Part shown: piece by piece, positions 2,186 through 50,118 of the stretch
How positions within the stretch are numbered: the first letter of the stretch is position 1
Layout of the letters: every line of letters begins with the position of its first letter
DNA from: Lindgomyces ingoldianus
Taxonomy: Eukaryota; Ascomycota; Dothideomycetes; Pleosporales; Lindgomycetaceae
DNA length: 64,000 nucleotides
Assembly (NCBI RefSeq): GCF_010093535.1
Contig: NW_022985162.1
Span: forward strand, 2,268,637-2,332,636
Direction: 5' to 3'
Position numbers and translations under genes: made by a program
Notes under the pieces: generated by a model
Seen by the model: only the letters and a program-made list of their open reading frames with translations
What the model was told of the DNA's origin: nothing
Database searches by the model: none

Positions 2186-5100
2186 TCGGCCTAACCGTCG
2201 TGAGAGTTCGAAGTTTTACAGGCTGATGGCGGCACACATTGGACGTCGCGGTCCCGCGGGTAGGAAGGCGATCGGCAATGGCCTGCTTCCGGTGCGAACC
2301 CTCTACCTCTCGGCCAGTATGAGAATACAGGCGAGGATAGGAGATTCGAATGGAGAAATTTCAAGACAGACAGAATGAAGTGCCGCGAGTCAAAGGCGTT
2401 GCCCGTGCTCCGAGAGAACGTGGAGTTGTTGACAGGAAAATTGGGGAGAGGGTTCAAGGTCTGGGTCTGACGCCTCGAGCGATCGCACGACGGCAGCGTT
2501 GCGAGGAGCGGGGGACGCCTCCTTAGCGAAGGGTGGGGCGCAAGGGCCAATTAGAGGAGGGTGGATGGACGGGAATGAGGTCGCAAAATAATGCACCTGC
2601 ACACGCACCGCGGCGACGGCTGAGGAGCGATGAGCTGGAAGCAGAAAAGGGTGGCGAGCGTTGTGGCAGGGGAGTTGGTTGTAAGCGGTAGGTGGCAGGT
2701 GGTAGGTGGACAGGCGGACCGAGAGGAGGGGAGACTCAACGTGTGCAGCCAGCCGTGCACAGAGGAAGATGTGTGAGAGGGCGATCTGCTGAGCGGGGAG
2801 GGGATACGACTTTAACGACTAGGAAGACAGAGCTAAAGTGCCGGGGCAGGGTGCAAGAGCGCTCCAACTCCTCCTTAGCTCAAGTCGCACAGCAAGGTAG
2901 GGAAGAAGGTATATAGTGAACCGAGTAAGTTAATGTATAGATCCTGCCGTGCTCGGCGGAGACGTCCAATTCGACTCAGACACACCTCTGAAGTGGTTGA
3001 AATGGGTGACCCTAGAAGCTGGCCCGAGTTGCTGGGCCACCTCTTTTAAACTTAAAGCAGGGTGCAGGCCAAAGGTTGGAGAGGTGCACTGCGCGCAAGT
3101 GGGACTGTGGGAGGTCGGACTGGTGTGGGAATGAAGGCCTGCACCGTGGCTTCGTAAAAGACGACGCCAGTGTCAAAAGGCGCCTGTCTGTGAGCACTAG
3201 GTGCTGCGGACGCTGCCACCTCGTCGATGGCTTGTTGTATATAACGTATTTGCAGTACGGCCATGCGTATTGTATCGTGTCATTACTCGTTGCGCCCTAG
3301 ACCCATCATCCTTTTCCTCACTTGGCCAGTGTGCCCACGCACATCTCTGCAATATTGTTGGCTGATAGGCCTCAGCAACGGCGGGCCATGATGATGGTGG
3401 TTCCATGATGGGACAGCGGGGAAGGATGCAAAACCAGTGAACGCTGCTGCAGCTATTTGCAGCATCAAACACCTGATTAGCCCTGATGTCTAGCCAATGC
3501 TAGATTGGCAGCGTCGGCCTTTTGATATGCTGCTGCTGAGTATTTGTCCCAAACGCCATCAAACGATGGCTGCGCGCTCCAGCAGTTAGTGACGACGCGA
3601 CACTTTGGTCTAGACTGCAACACAACCTTGGAAGATTGGTCCTGTGGAGAGTGAGGCCTGCTGTACCACGGTCCATTGCCATCTTGTACAACAAGTGACA
3701 GCGTTTCCGTCTTTTCGCGAATTTAGATCATTTCCATCCCGCATTTGTCAATGCTTCTGGCATGAACATTGATGACGAAGCTGACTCCAGCCGCGTCGAA
3801 CGTTTGGAGCTTCAAGCCGCAGGAAAGCAAGGACCACGATGCGCCTCTTGGTGCGTAGATCCTGGGGAATTCGGCCATCCTAGGTCACGTTGGGCTAGGC
3901 TAGCTGCCGGTCCAAAGTTTGAACAGTAGTTTTACGCAGACGCGGGCAGCCCCCGCATGAGACGACTTTCATGTGGGCAGTGAGCTCGACAGCAAAAAGG
4001 AATCTACACCCCGCTATCTGGGCCTCCTTGTGGGATAGTCTTTGCGCAGCACGTCATGTCGCTGCCCAGTCGGAGAAAAGCCGATTCCCTTTCATTTGAT
4101 ACTTATTGACGAACTCGGATTTGGATGAGCTGGTATCGCGTATCTGTGCCGAAATTTGAGACTTCAAATTTTAGCATTTAGCGGGCGGGAGACGGAGCGC
4201 AGCGGGTTTGAGAGCACGCTCCAGCAGCTGGCTCCAGACTCGTTTCCTTGAGAGCCGCCTAACCTTGAATCGGGATATTCCCTTGACAAGACGAGGTTGG
4301 GGGAAACGGAATCTCTTGTGCTCCAAACCCTGTGTACTGTGGTACTGGGTAGTAATTTGCTCATAACGCTAACGAAACCTTGAAAGTGCGGAGACAACGA
4401 CAGCTTCACATCTGTTTTCGGTGCATGGTCACAACGCCAGATTGAGCTCGCTGCAGCTGCGTCAGCCCTCGGACAAACTGTACCGCATTGTTTTGCCCTG
4501 CAAGTATTGAAAGGGCCGAGGAAGCATCAACCTGGCATCCGTTGGCAGGACTCTGTTGGGCGCTGGTGGACGCCGTGATGTGCCGGTAACACGCTAGCTT
4601 GCAGAATCTCGATCAACAAAGTTTCGAGTGAGCAGCCAGTGATCGTCGGGAGTTCATGGCTGCATTAGGCCCGCGAAGTTCCCGCGAATCCGATTTTCAG
4701 CTCTCCGCAAACTTGGAGTCTGATGAACGACTTCCTGAATGCTCGTCCCTGCAGAAGGTAGCGAGCGCCGTCAACAAGATGACTTACATTAGTTCATTAT
4801 TGCTTGGAAGGTAACGGACGCAAGGAGCCGACGAGGTGGTGTGGTAGTCTCTGTGGAGGAGGAAGCGAAGGATAAATGCGTGACGTGCATATTTTAGCGG
4901 CATGGCTGACGCGGGGTTGGCTTGGTTGGCTGACACGTCTCGAGGACTGAGAGGGGCTGCAAGTCACCCTGCGAAAAACATATTGTCGATGGGAAATGCA
5001 GCTGAAGCCTCAATATTCCCTCCTGTTAAGCTTCGATGAATTACCAAGGAGACGGTACTGTGTGTGGGACATCCGGGACGTCCGCCCAAGCGGGAGGCGT

Positions 5101-5769: not shown

Positions 5770-8709
5770 ATGTTCAACTTCACTCCGCTTCTGGGCGCGC
5801 AATCCGCCTCGGCGGCGTCACAGTCTCTACTCGAATTCGATGGCGGCATAAAAGTGCTCATCGACGCGGGCTGGGACGAGAGTTTCGACGTGGAGAAGCT
5901 GAAGAACATCGAGAAACATATTCCCACGCTCTCGTTCATCCTGCTGACCCACGCAACAACCTCCCATCTCGGAGCTTTCGCACACTGCTGCAAGCACTTC
6001 CCTTTGTTCACGCGTATACCCGTCTATGCCACCACTCCCGTCATCTCCCTCGGGCGAACCCTGCTCCAGGACTTGTACGCCTCGACGCCGCTGGCTTCCT
6101 CGGTAATACCCCAGGACGCGCTCAATGAGTCAGCCTTCGCTTTTCCCTCGTCCAAGGACGGAAGTAATCCGAACATATTGCTTCAGGCGCCGACCGTCGA
6201 TGAAATCGGCAACTATTTCTCCCTCATCAACCCTCTCAAATACTCCCAACCGCATCAGCCGCTCCCGTCACCTTTCTCTCCACCCCTTGGTGGCCTCACG
6301 ATTACCGCTTATAGCGCCGGGCACACCCTCGGAGGCACAATATGGCATATACAGCACAATATGGAATCGGTGGTTTATGCAGTAGACTGGAATCAAGCAA
6401 GGGAGCACGTTCTCTCGGGCGCTGCCTGGCTCGGGGGTCCCGGGACCAGTGGCTCAGAGGTTCTCGAGCAGCTCCGCCGACCAACTGCAATGATTTGTAG
6501 CAGTAAAGGGGCTGGTATGGTGACAATAGGGGGGCAAAGACACAAACGAGACGACGCTCTCCTTTCAATGATTCGAGAAACAGTGGCGAACGGCGGATCT
6601 GTGCTTATTCCTTCGGATTCAAGCGCTCGCATCCTCGAGCTTGCCTATCTCCTAGAAGAAACATGGCAGGCGGAGACAACAAAGGCGGACGGAGATAGCC
6701 CGTTAAGGCGCGCTAGGCCCTTCCTTGCCAGCAGAACCAGCGGAGCTACGATGAGATATGTACGGAGCATGCTGGAGTGGATGGAAGAGGGTATTGTGAA
6801 GGAATTTGAAACCGCCACCGGGGCCCAAGAATCCCAAAATCTAAGACGTGGCCGGGGACAGCAGAGTAGCCATGATAAAGCAGACGAGGACAAGGTAGCA
6901 AAGGCGCCTTTTGACTTCAGACACATCACCCTATTGGAACGAAGATCCCAAGTAAATAGGATGCTAGGCTCTGCTGAGCCTTGTGTGATTCTCGCAAGCG
7001 ACACTTCTTTCGAATGGGGGTTTTCCAAGGATGCCATCAAAGTCATGGCGTCAGATCCTCGCAATCTTATAATCCTCACGCAGCGCGCGGGTGAGAAATC
7101 CGGGCAGGAGAAGGGTCTCGGTAGATATCTTTGGGAGCTATGGAACGAACAGAATGCCTCATCAGGACAAGATGCGCCCTCTACCGCTGTCATTAACTCA
7201 GCCGGTATTGAAGCACTTATACCATCCATGCAAAGGGTTTCGCTTGAAGGCAACGAGCTCCATTTGTATCAACAGTACCTAGCCCGCCAACGGCAGCTAC
7301 AAAACACGATTCAAGGAGACTCTGGAGCAACATTAGAAGCGTCCGCGGACGTGGTAGATGACCGCTCTTCCTCGACCTCTACAACTTCCGAGGACTCGGA
7401 TATAGAGCATCAAGGCAAGGCGCTCAACACAGCAACGACATTACAACACGCTCGACACAAACTTGGGCTCAGCGATGCGGAGTTGGGCATCAATATCTTG
7501 ATTCGACGCCACAACGTCTTTGACTATCAAGTTCAGGGGAAGAAGGGTCGGGAGAAATCGTTCCCTTATGTTGCAAAGAGAAGACGGGCGGATGATATGG
7601 GAGAGCTGATTAGACCGGAGGAGTTTATCCGCGCTGATGAGAGGGATCAAGTTGAAACAGAAGGTTTGCTCGAAGGTGCGGGTAAAAAGGAGAATGCGGT
7701 TGGGATGAAGAGGAAGTGGGATGATCCAGCTATTCGCCCTGGTGATGGAGCGCGACGCATACCAAACGGCGCCGGGAAACGACGAAGGACAGATGGAGCC
7801 GGAGGGAGTACTTCAGGCACTGGTATTGAGGACGCCGAGTCCTCAGACAGCGAACCTGAGGATGAAGCAGACAAGATCGAAGGCCCGTCCAAGCTCATCT
7901 TCGGAACTGAAACCCTCCAACTCAACTGCCAGATCTCCTTCGTCGACTACTCCGGCCTCCACGACCGCCGCGCTATCCAAATGTTAGTCCCTCTCATCAA
8001 GCCGCGCAAACTCATCTTCATCGCCGGCGAAGCAGCAGAAACTAATGACCTCGCCTCCGAATGTCGCCAACTTCTAAACGCAAGCTCCAGCGACTCTACC
8101 AGCAGCGTCGACGTCTTTGCTCCCGCCATTGGCACCACAATTGACGCCAGCGTCGACACCAACGCTTGGACCGTCAAGCTTAGCCGCGACCTTGTCCGCA
8201 AACTTCAGTGGCAAAACGTCCGCGGCCTCGGCGTCGTTGCTATTACCGGTCTCCTACGGCCCGCCTCCCTCTCCCTCCCTATCCGACAAACCGACGGCAC
8301 CGCGAAGAAGAAAGTTAGACTGCAAGACCCCGCCTCCGACGTCCCCATTCAGAAAGCTGGAGAGAAAGAAGAGCAACCACAGATAAACCTCACGCCCATC
8401 CTCGACATCGTCCCCGCGAACCTCGCATCTGCCACCCGCTCCGTCGCCCAGCCCTTCCATGTCGGCGATCTCAGACTCGCAGATCTCCGCAAAACCATGC
8501 AGGCTTCAGGTATGACGGCCGAGTTCCGGGGCGAGGGTGTGTTGGTCATCAATGGCACTGTTGCGATTCGGAAGAGTGGAACTGGCAAGATTGAAATCGA
8601 TGGCGGAGCATATAGTTTCGCGGATCCGAAGAATGGGGATGCGGGGACCTTTTTTAGGGTAAGGAGACTGGTTTATGGAGGCTTAGCTGTGGTGTCGGGG
8701 GTAAATTGA
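5770..8709 (+). CDS. CFT2: Cleavage and polyadenylation factor subunit 2 (CPSF100)
   Basis: Intronless, 979 aa. The product is the CPSF100/Cft2 subunit of the nuclear pre-mRNA cleavage and polyadenylation factor, which pairs with the endonuclease Ysh1/CPSF73. The N-terminus is a metallo-beta-lactamase fold: the LLEFDGGIKVLIDAGWDE strand region at residues 18-40, then FILLTHATTSHLGAF, where active enzymes have HxHxDH. Here that motif is degenerate (HATTSH), as is typical of the non-catalytic CPSF100 family. A beta-CASP region follows (RPTAMICSSKGAG, then AEPCVILASDTSFEWGFS). Residues ~530-720 are an acidic and basic low-complexity linker with KRRR-type stretches. The C-terminus (LIFGTETLQLNCQISFVDYSGLHDRRA onward, cited from two adjoining parts) matches the Cft2 C-terminal domain. 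Length agrees with the family. The ATG follows TCTACC and is the first in frame. Confidence 0.93.
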   Translation: MFNFTPLLGAQSASAASQSLLEFDGGIKVLIDAGWDESFDVEKLKNIEKHIPTLSFILLTHATTSHLGAFAHCCKHFPLFTRIPVYATTPVISLGRTLLQDLYASTPLASSVIPQDALNESAFAFPSSKDGSNPNILLQAPTVDEIGNYFSLINPLKYSQPHQPLPSPFSPPLGGLTITAYSAGHTLGGTIWHIQHNMESVVYAVDWNQAREHVLSGAAWLGGPGTSGSEVLEQLRRPTAMICSSKGAGMVTIGGQRHKRDDALLSMIRETVANGGSVLIPSDSSARILELAYLLEETWQAETTKADGDSPLRRARPFLASRTSGATMRYVRSMLEWMEEGIVKEFETATGAQESQNLRRGRGQQSSHDKADEDKVAKAPFDFRHITLLERRSQVNRMLGSAEPCVILASDTSFEWGFSKDAIKVMASDPRNLIILTQRAGEKSGQEKGLGRYLWELWNEQNASSGQDAPSTAVINSAGIEALIPSMQRVSLEGNELHLYQQYLARQRQLQNTIQGDSGATLEASADVVDDRSSSTSTTSEDSDIEHQGKALNTATTLQHARHKLGLSDAELGINILIRRHNVFDYQVQGKKGREKSFPYVAKRRRADDMGELIRPEEFIRADERDQVETEGLLEGAGKKENAVGMKRKWDDPAIRPGDGARRIPNGAGKRRRTDGAGGSTSGTGIEDAESSDSEPEDEADKIEGPSKLIFGTETLQLNCQISFVDYSGLHDRRAIQMLVPLIKPRKLIFIAGEAAETNDLASECRQLLNASSSDSTSSVDVFAPAIGTTIDASVDTNAWTVKLSRDLVRKLQWQNVRGLGVVAITGLLRPASLSLPIRQTDGTAKKKVRLQDPASDVPIQKAGEKEEQPQINLTPILDIVPANLASATRSVAQPFHVGDLRLADLRKTMQASGMTAEFRGEGVLVINGTVAIRKSGTGKIEIDGGAYSFADPKNGDAGTFFRVRRLVYGGLAVVSGVN

Positions 8710-46900: not shown

Positions 46901-47971
46901 CCTTGCTGTACCCGTTGCCCTGGGTTGGAACGAAACGCTCACATTTGAGTGACGAGGATAGTCGAACCCTTTTGGGTTGCATGTGTCACCTGCTTGAGTC
47001 GCCACATATCCCCATAATGCCTCAGCACTGTGACGAGTCACTCGAAGTCACAATCCCTGCGCCTCAGCCGCCCAGCAAGCCGTGCGACTCAGACCTCGAA
47101 TACGTATTTATAGCTCCATCAACGATACCCTATGACCTGCGAACCTGCTTCTTCAGCGAAAGGCGCCGGCTGGCGTACAAGGCGTTTATTGTCCCACCCT
47201 CTCTTAGAATTTCTTTGTCTCTGGGTTCGGTCTCTTGGCTTTCCTCACAGCCAGCTTGGCAGGCGGAGTCTTGGTTGCATGACAGAGCGATCGAGGACCA
47301 CTCTCGCTTGTCGGTATTTCTGTATGTTAATTTATGTACTCAATCCATATATTTCCTGAATTTCTTACTCGCCATATCCTCATGTGATACAATTCGAAAA
47401 TAACAAATGGGTGCATGTATGTTTATCTTATTGGCCGAGCACTGGAACCCAGCAGCGACCGTGGAGAACTTATCCTCCATGTATATACAGCAGCACCTGT
47501 CATGAAGTCCCAGCAGCGAAAATCCAGTAACGTGCTTCATCTGAACAACTAATCCCCCTCTGAACCCTCTCCGTGTCGCCTCCTCATCTCTTCAATTTGC
47601 TGGCAAGCGTAGACCGCCCTCTTCCTTTTCCCCCTAGTTTTTTTTCTAAGACCCTCTGCTTCTCCTGCATTTAAGACCCTCTCTTAACCTCTCCCCCAGC
47701 CCCTTCCACATCTTTCTTCAACAGGAAGGAGTGGCGTGTCGACGTACTTGACCGTACTCCAAATTAGGCTAATTATCTATGGATGAGAGCTGTAGTCCTG
47801 CGTTTAGGCCTCAAAATCCGCGCCATGCGCGTGTCCGCCGCACACGAATTTGGCGACATAACGCTGGTGATGGTACTATTAAAAGGACCTATAGTTTACG
47901 TTAGTCCTTCCTGCACTGTATTCAGGTTTTCATCCTTGAATCGCAATAGAATAATACCTCCTAGCTGGTGG
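46901..47971. other. Spacer left of the first transposon
   Basis: This carries an ATG-initiated frame of 140 codons (46981-47403, plus) without family motif, which I do not call. A pyrimidine-rich stretch (near 47560-47720) follows. The right end is the 8-bp target duplication of the element described next. Confidence 0.35.
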
Positions 47972-47979
47972 CTTCTACT
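47972..47979. repeat. Left target-site duplication of hAT element 1
   Basis: CTTCTACT, identical to 48890-48897 on the other side of the element and in the same orientation. Confidence 0.85.
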
Positions 47980-48889
47980 CATGGTGTTTAATAGAACGTA
48001 ACTGTTACTGTCAGTAGTATTTTTGAGGCGTTACTAGCAGCAATAGGGTTTTGTCCTTACAGAAAGAGTGAATTAAAACAGCCTTACAGGCAGTAACAGT
48101 TACTGCTAAGTTAATTAATAGTAAAGTTACTGTTTAGTGCAGTTACTGCAGTAACTAGTGTTTCTAGAGGCTCCAGAGGGCTTAATTTTAACGCAATTTT
48201 GCTGATATAGTCGCAGAGATTGTTTAACTCTAAGATTATAGGAGGCAATAGCTGTAATTAAGTTCTTTATATAATATCTTAGACCCCTAGGTTTTACCTA
48301 GCAACCTCTAGTCTAGATATTGTCCCACTTAATGTTAAAATTTAGGCTGTTGTTAAGGCAAAAGTCCTTAGGAAACTTGTAAGAATAAAAACACTAGAGG
48401 ATAAGGCCCTAATTATAGAGCTTTAAGAGCTCTTAGAGGCAGCCCTTAACTTTTTAAGGTATTAAAAGCTTGTAAAGTAAGGCTCTAGAGTACTTAGGCA
48501 AGTAAAGTTTAAACTAGTGCTATAAGCTTTAACTGCTACGTGAAGTTTAGCATGCTTATAGTAATGATAGAAGCAATATTAGAAGCAAGAAGTAGGTAAA
48601 TTAAGGAGTCACTTTAATATTCTATACTGGCAATAGATAGGATAGTTAAAAAAGTATAAAATCTAGTGTATTAGTGCGCGTTTAGCCCTTGTACTACTAC
48701 GCGCTAAAACGTCCTCTGCGAACGCGTTAACAAAACACTAAGAAATTAATTAGTATAGGCAGTTACTGCAGTAACTACAGCCTCATTAACTGTACAGTAA
48801 CAGAAGGCAATTCACTTTTGTTCTAACTGCTAAGAGATTGTTACTAGTAGTAACAGTAGGAACAGTACTACGTTCTATTAAACACCATG
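47980..48889. mobile_element. Non-autonomous hAT-type DNA transposon, 910 bp
   Basis: The ends are 21-bp perfect terminal inverted repeats starting CATGGTGTTTAATAGAACGT (47980-48000 and 48869-48889), with weaker matching beyond. The element is flanked by an exact 8-bp direct repeat CTTCTACT (47972-47979 and 48890-48897). Eight-base target duplications and a CA...TG end are hallmarks of the hAT superfamily. The interior is AT-rich and has no frame over 60 codons, so it cannot encode transposase and would need one supplied in trans. GTTACTG/CAGTAAC motifs cluster in the outer ~170 bp at both ends. The intact ends and duplication suggest a fairly recent insertion. Confidence 0.85.
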
Positions 48890-48897
48890 CTTCTACT
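48890..48897. repeat. Right target-site duplication of hAT element 1
   Basis: CTTCTACT directly follows the CACCATG end of the element. Confidence 0.85.
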
Positions 48898-49514: not shown

Positions 49515-50118
49515 CAGGGCTTCCAACGGGCCGTACTACGGTCCGTACAAAGTGAACCGTAACGGTCACGTGTTCAGTACGAACGTACCGAGTTCGTGAG
49601 CCGTACCGTACGTTTAATGATGCCCTAGGTACGGTACGTAGTACAGATCGTATTACCTTTTTAGGAAGTTTGTATAGGTGTTCTGGAGGGGTATAAGGGC
49701 TCTAGCGAGCAGGAGGCCTGCGGACGCTTAAATCTCTTTCTAAGGGTTTTAATCTATCTATCTGTCTGTCGTCTTAAAAATGCCTATTACAGACTATTTT
49801 CTATTGCAGAGTTATCTATCTACGCCTCTTGCAGCCTTACAGGCCTCATCTAGTCCTATCTGCTCTTGTTACTAGGGAGAACTAATTAATTAGACCTTAA
49901 TCTTGCGTCTCTAGAGACCCATAGTCTTAGCTGTTTTAACTAGAGTACAGCGTACTTTAATTAAATCGCACTACTTGTACAGATCACGTGAGCCGTAACA
50001 GTTACGATACGTACACCTACCTCTCCTCCTCCCTGTTGTACGAACGTACACAAAATCTCACCCGTACAGGCCTCAAAATCGCCCAATCGTACAGTACTAC
50101 GCCTCGTTGGAAGCTCTG
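49515..50118. mobile_element. Second non-autonomous hAT-type element, 604 bp
   Basis: The ends are imperfect inverted repeats: the left begins CAGGGCTTCCAACGGGCCGT and the right, read inward on the minus strand, begins CAGAGCTTCCAACGAGGCGT. Seventeen of these 20 bases match. CAG(G/A)G is the usual start of hAT ends. An exact 8-bp direct repeat CACCTCCT flanks it (49507-49514 and 50119-50126). Both end regions are densely filled with GTAC-containing motifs, including the 12-mer GTACGAACGTAC at 49577-49588 and again at 50038-50049. The interior has no transposase-like frame. Its ends differ from those of element 1, so it is a separate family. Confidence 0.8.

What the first reader, a model, noticed from the sequence alone, without database searches (positions are those of the whole stretch)
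47972..48897. Intact non-autonomous hAT-type transposon with perfect ends and exact 8-bp duplication
Seen: 21-bp perfect inverted terminal repeats (CATGGTGTTTAATAGAACGT...) 910 bp apart, flanked by identical CTTCTACT. Known: hAT elements make 8-bp target duplications. Inference: a recently moved element that needs a transposase in trans, possibly an undescribed family.
Basis: partly seen in the sequence, partly recalled or inferred. Interest (0 to 1): 0.75.

Follow-up and report, generated by a model that had tools for sequence, protein, structure and literature searches.

The report
Deletion-derived hAT transposon in a fungus
A short "jumping gene" in a fungal genome that lost its own engine but kept the ends needed to be moved; it is a clear, well-preserved member of a known kind of mobile DNA, with longer coding relatives and many sister copies in the same genome.

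Summary
In detail: window 47980-48889 is a 910-bp element with perfect 21-bp inverted ends and an exact 8-bp duplication. It belongs to a family: the terminal 21-mer occurs 131 times, a reversed control 4 times; 28 of 32 copies examined have duplications matching at 7 or 8 of 8 bases. A 3083-bp relative encodes a hAT dimerisation domain. The window element is that form minus two internal stretches, with a junction shared by 11 of 35 copies. All 26 short copies examined keep both end regions, where a GTTACTG motif clusters. The long copies carry the marks of repeat-induced point mutation, and the transposase frames seen are broken. Empty sites exist for sister copies, two within this window, but none was found for the window copy. 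"Recently moved" is not supported: the window copy has diverged more from its class than 594-bp copies have from theirs. Host: a Pleosporales-like fungus. New family member of a known kind (Ds-like hAT derivative); modest interest.

The parts
47972..47979 (.). left target-site duplication CTTCTACT
47980..48000 (+). left terminal inverted repeat, 21 bp
47980..48234 (+). left end, corresponds to positions 1-255 of the 3083-bp relative L011; holds the left cluster of GTTACTG/CAGTAAC motifs and, by the L011 frame coordinates, the antisense tail of the transposase frame
   Evidence: (88% identity over 1-251)
48235..48257 (+). 23-bp junction: about 20 bp correspond to L011 positions 304-323, then 3 unmatched bases; found in 11 of 35 copies, this one included
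48258..48889 (+). right part, corresponds to L011 positions 2393-3083; holds the right motif cluster and probably the antisense start of the transposase frame
   Evidence: (79% identity)
48869..48889 (-). right terminal inverted repeat, 21 bp
48890..48897 (.). right target-site duplication CTTCTACT
49828..49835 (+). empty target site (one copy of CTTGCAGC) matching the flanks of sister element L038, inside a second repeat
49972..49979 (+). empty target site (TACTTGTA here, TACATGTA at the filled locus) matching the flanks of sister element L032, inside the same second repeat

Best explanation
It is a Ds-like, internally deleted hAT transposon. A 3083-bp type of hAT element in this fungus lost most of its transposase gene in two internal stretches (positions about 256-303 and 324-2392). 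The deleted form kept both inverted ends and both motif-rich regions next to them, so a hAT transposase made elsewhere could cut it out and paste it into new sites, leaving 8-bp duplications. It multiplied and was trimmed further into classes of about 720, 635 and 594 bp. Shown: the anatomy, the shared junction, family-wide duplications, empty sites for sisters, a hAT transposase gene in the long form, C-to-T damage. Inferred: mobilisation in trans, binding of the motif by the transposase, the order of the deletions, present inactivity.
For: 75 matching pieces in the genome, several per copy, with 40 of 93 candidates scored. 28 of 32 copies with 7 or 8 of 8 duplication bases, 25 with 8. Terminal 21-mer 131 times against 4 for the reversed control. 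L011 (C3, 3083 bp) matches the window element at both ends and has PF05699 at E 1.1e-17 in a 205-aa open stretch. The two-deletion junction is in 11 of 35 copies. Of 26 short copies, 26 keep L011 positions 2946-3083 and 24 to 26 keep each position of 2-201; BLAST matched none at 256-367 or 566-2392, though it is blind to the 20-bp island at 304-323. GTTACTG or its complement occurs 9 times in the terminal 400 bp and 0 times in the other 510 bp, single-base shuffle mean 0.05, maximum 2 of 2000 (the motif was picked by eye from this sequence). Empty sites with one copy of the target.
Against: No unbroken transposase frame of this family was seen: the L011 frame has about ten stops, and its closest relatives have 13 to 16 in the 302-aa stretch searched, with 130 of 249 candidates scored. 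The interior of L017, whose ends match L011 at 98-100%, reads N over 2605 bases, so a live helper is neither shown nor excluded. Two of the three open stretches of L011 have no Pfam match. No empty site for the window copy. 4 of 32 copies lack a clear duplication; L025 has 3 of 8.
Confidence: 0.94

Rival explanations
1. The short copies are independent leftovers of coding elements that each decayed in place, not a mobile non-autonomous family.
For: L014 has its own pattern of loss; the 613-bp class (L073, L074) joins other breakpoints.
Against: 11 of 35 copies share one two-deletion junction; 9 of those 11 have their own 8-bp duplications at 7 or 8 of 8 bases, with different target sequences. 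L036-L042 are all 594 bp, six of them at different target sites.
Confidence: 0.04
2. A recently moved, possibly still mobile copy.
For: Perfect ends and duplication. The count of private changes has a bias: the window copy was compared with more distant relatives than the 594-bp copies were, and only part of the family was fetched, so a closer sister may exist.
Against: Against class consensus the window copy has 11 transversions in 721 columns, its three class mates 3 to 8, and seven 594-bp copies 0 or 1 each. 26 private changes in 719 columns, 6 transversions. No unbroken helper seen.
Confidence: 0.15
3. A chance pair of inverted repeats or a host palindrome.
For: None found.
Against: A family of copies with duplications and the shuffle comparison.
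Confidence: 0.005

Closest known systems
Maize Ac/Ds: Ds-del and Ds2 elements (PMC3260210; abstract and passages seen)
   Same: Non-coding forms keep the inverted ends; Ds2 forms keep about 200 bp at each end with repeated transposase-binding motifs; 8-bp duplications.
   Different: Here the perfect ends are 21 bp and begin CATGG, not the 11-bp Ac ends; the motif is GTTACTG, not AAACGG; the host is a fungus; copies carry repeat-induced point mutation; there are uniform size classes.
hAT elements of Pyrenophora tritici-repentis, 5.6-kb and 2.3-kb forms (PMC3538342; passages seen)
   Same: Also a Pleosporales fungus; a hAT element with inverted ends and a shorter non-autonomous form made by internal loss.
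   Different: That short form still encodes a chimeric protein with the dimerisation domain, and the element carries a histone-H3-like gene; this one has no such gene and is much shorter.
L063 (C6) and L064 (C24), other hAT elements in this genome
   Same: 8-bp duplications (CCAGTTTT, CGAAGATC) and transposase frames 53% and 50% identical to parts of the L011 frame.
   Different: Ends begin CAGCGTGGCCAACA and CAG(C/G)GTTCCCAACC, so not the same family.

Membership tests
hAT superfamily | 8-bp target-site duplication | tested here: met
   28 of 32 copies match at 7 or 8 of 8 bases, 25 at 8; L073 and L074 8/8, L072 6/8
hAT superfamily | Short inverted ends with A at position 2 and G at position 5 (rule recalled) | tested here: met
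   CATGGTGTTT at both ends of the window copy
hAT superfamily | Same-ended relative encoding a transposase with the hAT dimerisation domain | tested here: met
   L011: PF05699 E 1.1e-17 inside the 3083-bp element; PF05699 matches also inside L010, L009 and L014 (which rang in 0 of 14 control genomes)
hAT superfamily | Catalytic acidic residues and CxxH / RW motifs (assignment recalled) | tested here: inconclusive
   Stretches of the expected look (ADVWESPN, VGDNASNND, RCAGHIINL, RWNSTY, SCECERCFS) are in the L011 frame; judged by eye only
hAT superfamily | Precise empty sites | tested here: met
   For sisters L038 and L032, aligned inside the window; for L009 and L042 by an uninterrupted search match only; none found for the window copy
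Ds-like internal-deletion derivative | Both ends collinear with a longer coding element, interior missing | tested here: met
   Positions 1-251 and 279-910 match L011 1-251 and 2393-3083; island of L011 304-323 between them
Ds-like internal-deletion derivative | Moves when the transposase is supplied | not testable with these tools
   needs an excision assay
Buster group of hAT | Target consensus nnnTAnnn (PMC10512250, passage) | tested here: not met
   0 of 29 distinct target sites have TA at positions 4-5; 17 of 29 have purine then pyrimidine there (list)

The most novel reading that the evidence does not exclude
The genome preserves, in one family, the stepwise birth of a miniature transposon: a 3083-bp coding form, one founding double deletion (the 910-bp type, kept here nearly whole), then repeated trimming to 720, 635 and 594 bp that stops at the motif-bearing ends, with repeat-induced point mutation silencing the coding parents while the shortest form spread last, perhaps on a helper that still exists in a masked or unsampled copy.
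Probability: 0.5. Interest if true: 0.4.

Novelty: new member of a known kind. Interest (0 to 1): 0.27.

Why it matters
It gives a well-documented fungal case of a non-autonomous hAT family with its coding relatives, deletion intermediates, target sites and empty sites in one assembly, and it predicts the transposase-binding motif (GTTACTG) and the minimal ends (about 200 bp and 138 bp). The biology is the expected one, so the value is mainly as a clean annotated example and as a caution that intact ends plus a perfect duplication do not by themselves mean a recent jump.

Tried and rejected
Recency of the window copy: not supported, with the bias stated under that rival. Filler DNA at the junction: first read as filler, then found to correspond to a 20-bp island of the parent, positions 304-323. 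Idea that short elements shrank to escape repeat-induced point mutation: GC of the shared ends does not track length among 24 copies under 1500 bp (Spearman -0.12, p 0.57; all 29 copies tested -0.30, p 0.11), so not supported. L063 as the same family: its ends differ from the 21-mer at 7 of 21 positions. Empty site for the window copy: the left flank 47700-47979 has only its own match; the right flank alone was not searched. Partner of the second repeat (49515-50118): only a weak 58-bp, 74% match to one end of L064; not pursued. A tree of the copies was not built, because parallel C-to-T damage would mislead it. Loci L016, L018 and L019 were fetched but left out of the 32-copy set because one end or none was found. 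Fold prediction was not used.

Full report
What is there. The window lies at G000:C1:2268637-2332636 in a 68.4-Mb, 99-contig genome. The CPSF2-type protein at 5770-8709 has its best named match, 81% identity, in Clohesyomyces aquaticus, followed by Corynespora, Zopfia and others (120 of 1569 hits listed), which I recall as Pleosporales; no species name is claimed for the host. Element 47980-48889 is 910 bp, has 21-bp perfect inverted ends and is flanked by CTTCTACT on both sides. A scan of the whole window for this kind of structure returns this element and one other, at 49515-50118; 20 shuffles gave 6 structures in all and never exceeded 11 of 14 matching end bases.

It is a family. The element has 75 matching pieces in its own genome, several per copy, with 40 of 93 candidates scored. 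The terminal 21-mer (up to 3 mismatches) occurs 131 times, the reversed control 4 times (not all places were listed). I took 32 copies: the window copy and 31 of the 34 loci fetched (L016, L018 and L019 dropped). Of these 32, 25 have an identical 8-bp duplication and 3 more differ at one base; L014, L020, L025 and L031 do not qualify (6 of 8 in L020, 3 of 8 in L025; L031 borders Ns; the end of L014 is unclear). L038 and L042 sit at the same target and are both counted there. Two further copies, L073 and L074, have 8/8, and L072 has 6/8.

The coding form. L011 and L010 are 3083 bp with nearly the same ends (one base differs in one arm) and 8-bp duplications. L011 carries a transposase frame on the strand opposite to the window orientation, with open pieces of 302, 82 and 205 aa in one frame; the last holds Dimer_Tnp_hAT (PF05699, E 1.1e-17), the other two have no Pfam match. 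About ten in-frame stops interrupt it; its closest relatives have 13 to 16 stops within the 302-aa stretch. That stretch matched 19 proteins in a public protein set, the best at 51% identity; one distant hit is named a hAT dimerisation protein of Paraphaeosphaeria sporulosa. The last piece of a related transposase in this genome (L063) matches Hermes transposase chains over its dimerisation region at E 6e-9.

Descent by deletion. Window-element positions 1-251 and 279-910 match L011 1-251 and 2393-3083; L010 and L009 match through 255. The 23 bp between begin with about 20 bp corresponding to L011 304-323, so two internal stretches are gone. The same junction is in 11 of 35 copies: the window copy, L015 and L020-L028. 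L029-L042 share or nearly share the right breakpoint (2393 or 2394) but have lost the island, as expected of later deletions; independent events at a favoured breakpoint are not excluded. L073 and L074 (about 613 bp) and L014 come from other deletions.

What is kept. Of 26 short copies (L014, L031 and the long ones left out), 26 keep L011 2946-3083 and 24 to 26 keep each position of 2-201; BLAST matched none at 256-367 or 566-2392, but it cannot see the 20-bp island. GTTACTG or its complement occurs 9 times in the terminal 400 bp of the window element and 0 times in its other 510 bp; in L011 10 and 0; 4 times in the rest of the window; shuffle mean 0.05, maximum 2 in 2000. The motif was picked by eye from this sequence, so the shuffle figure is after the fact. 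By analogy with the AAACGG repeats of Ac (PMC3260210, passages) I read these as transposase-binding sites; this is inference.

Damage and age. L009 differs from L011 by 499 C>T/G>A changes, 2 reverse transitions and no transversion; L010 by 278, 7 and 4, mostly at CpA and CpG: the mark of repeat-induced point mutation. The window element has TpA/ApT 2.37, where a paper on Cochliobolus heterostrophus gives above 0.89 as the sign of this process (PMC4112212, passages). The window copy differs from L011 by 80 such changes, 17 reverse and 17 transversions over 886 columns. Against the consensus of its class it has 11 transversions in 721 columns, its three class mates 3 to 8, and each of seven 594-bp copies 0 or 1 against theirs. 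Private changes point the same way: 10 C>T/G>A, 10 reverse and 6 transversions in 719 columns, against 1 transversion in all for the seven 594-bp copies, but the two sets were compared with relatives at different distances, and not all of the family was fetched. I conclude that the 594-bp class spread later and that recency of the window copy is unsupported, not disproved. No absolute date is given.

Empty sites. Joined flanks of 29 copies were searched in the genome (40 of 493 candidates scored, so a miss says little). The L038/L042, L032 and L009 sites have uninterrupted matches. Two lie in this window: the L038 site, 184 of 192 flank bases identical and one copy of CTTGCAGC, at 49828-49835; the L032 site, 166 of 192, at 49972-49979. 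These are empty sites in other copies of a repeat, not in another strain. The left flank of the window copy is single-copy, so the same test cannot be made for it here, and no relatives of this genome are held.

Verdict. A Ds-like, internally deleted hAT transposon, member of a family of this genome. Searches of held papers for the terminal 19-mer and for hAT miniature elements in fungi listed no paper that I recognised as describing it; I looked at listings, and at passages of four papers. The nearest is the hAT pair of Pyrenophora tritici-repentis (PMC3538342, passages). Curated repeat libraries were not available, so 'undescribed' is unproven.

Noticed in passing
window 49515-50118: A second hAT-like miniature element, 604 bp, 8-bp duplication CACCTCCT, ends CAG(G/A)GCTTCCAACG (31-bp arms 81% complementary); 35 other near-full-length copies at 84-98% identity were listed, with 40 of 276 candidates scored. 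Copies of it elsewhere host L038 and L042, and a copy or close relative hosts L032.
   Followed up: partly
L063 2587-5662 (G000:C6): A 3076-bp hAT element with 21-bp perfect ends, duplication CCAGTTTT and a largely open transposase frame (two short breaks, perhaps introns); reading frames on either side look, by eye, like two parts of a short-chain dehydrogenase gene, so it may interrupt a gene.
   Followed up: partly
L064 2138-4332 (G000:C24): A 2195-bp hAT element with duplication CGAAGATC and ends CAG(C/G)GTTCCCAACC.
   Followed up: no
L015, about 1058-1238 (element positions 109-289): A 1483-bp family member with extra sequence near its left end and more in its interior, not matched in L011.
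   Followed up: no
L017 5390-8506 (G000:C8:1165889-1169005): A 3117-bp copy whose ends match L011 at 98-100% but whose interior reads N over 2605 bases; withheld or an assembly gap, not pursued.
   Followed up: no
G000 whole genome: 147 matches to the hAT dimerisation domain (150 of 203 candidates scored), many with TAA or TAG stops inside, so hAT elements are abundant and largely broken here.
   Followed up: partly
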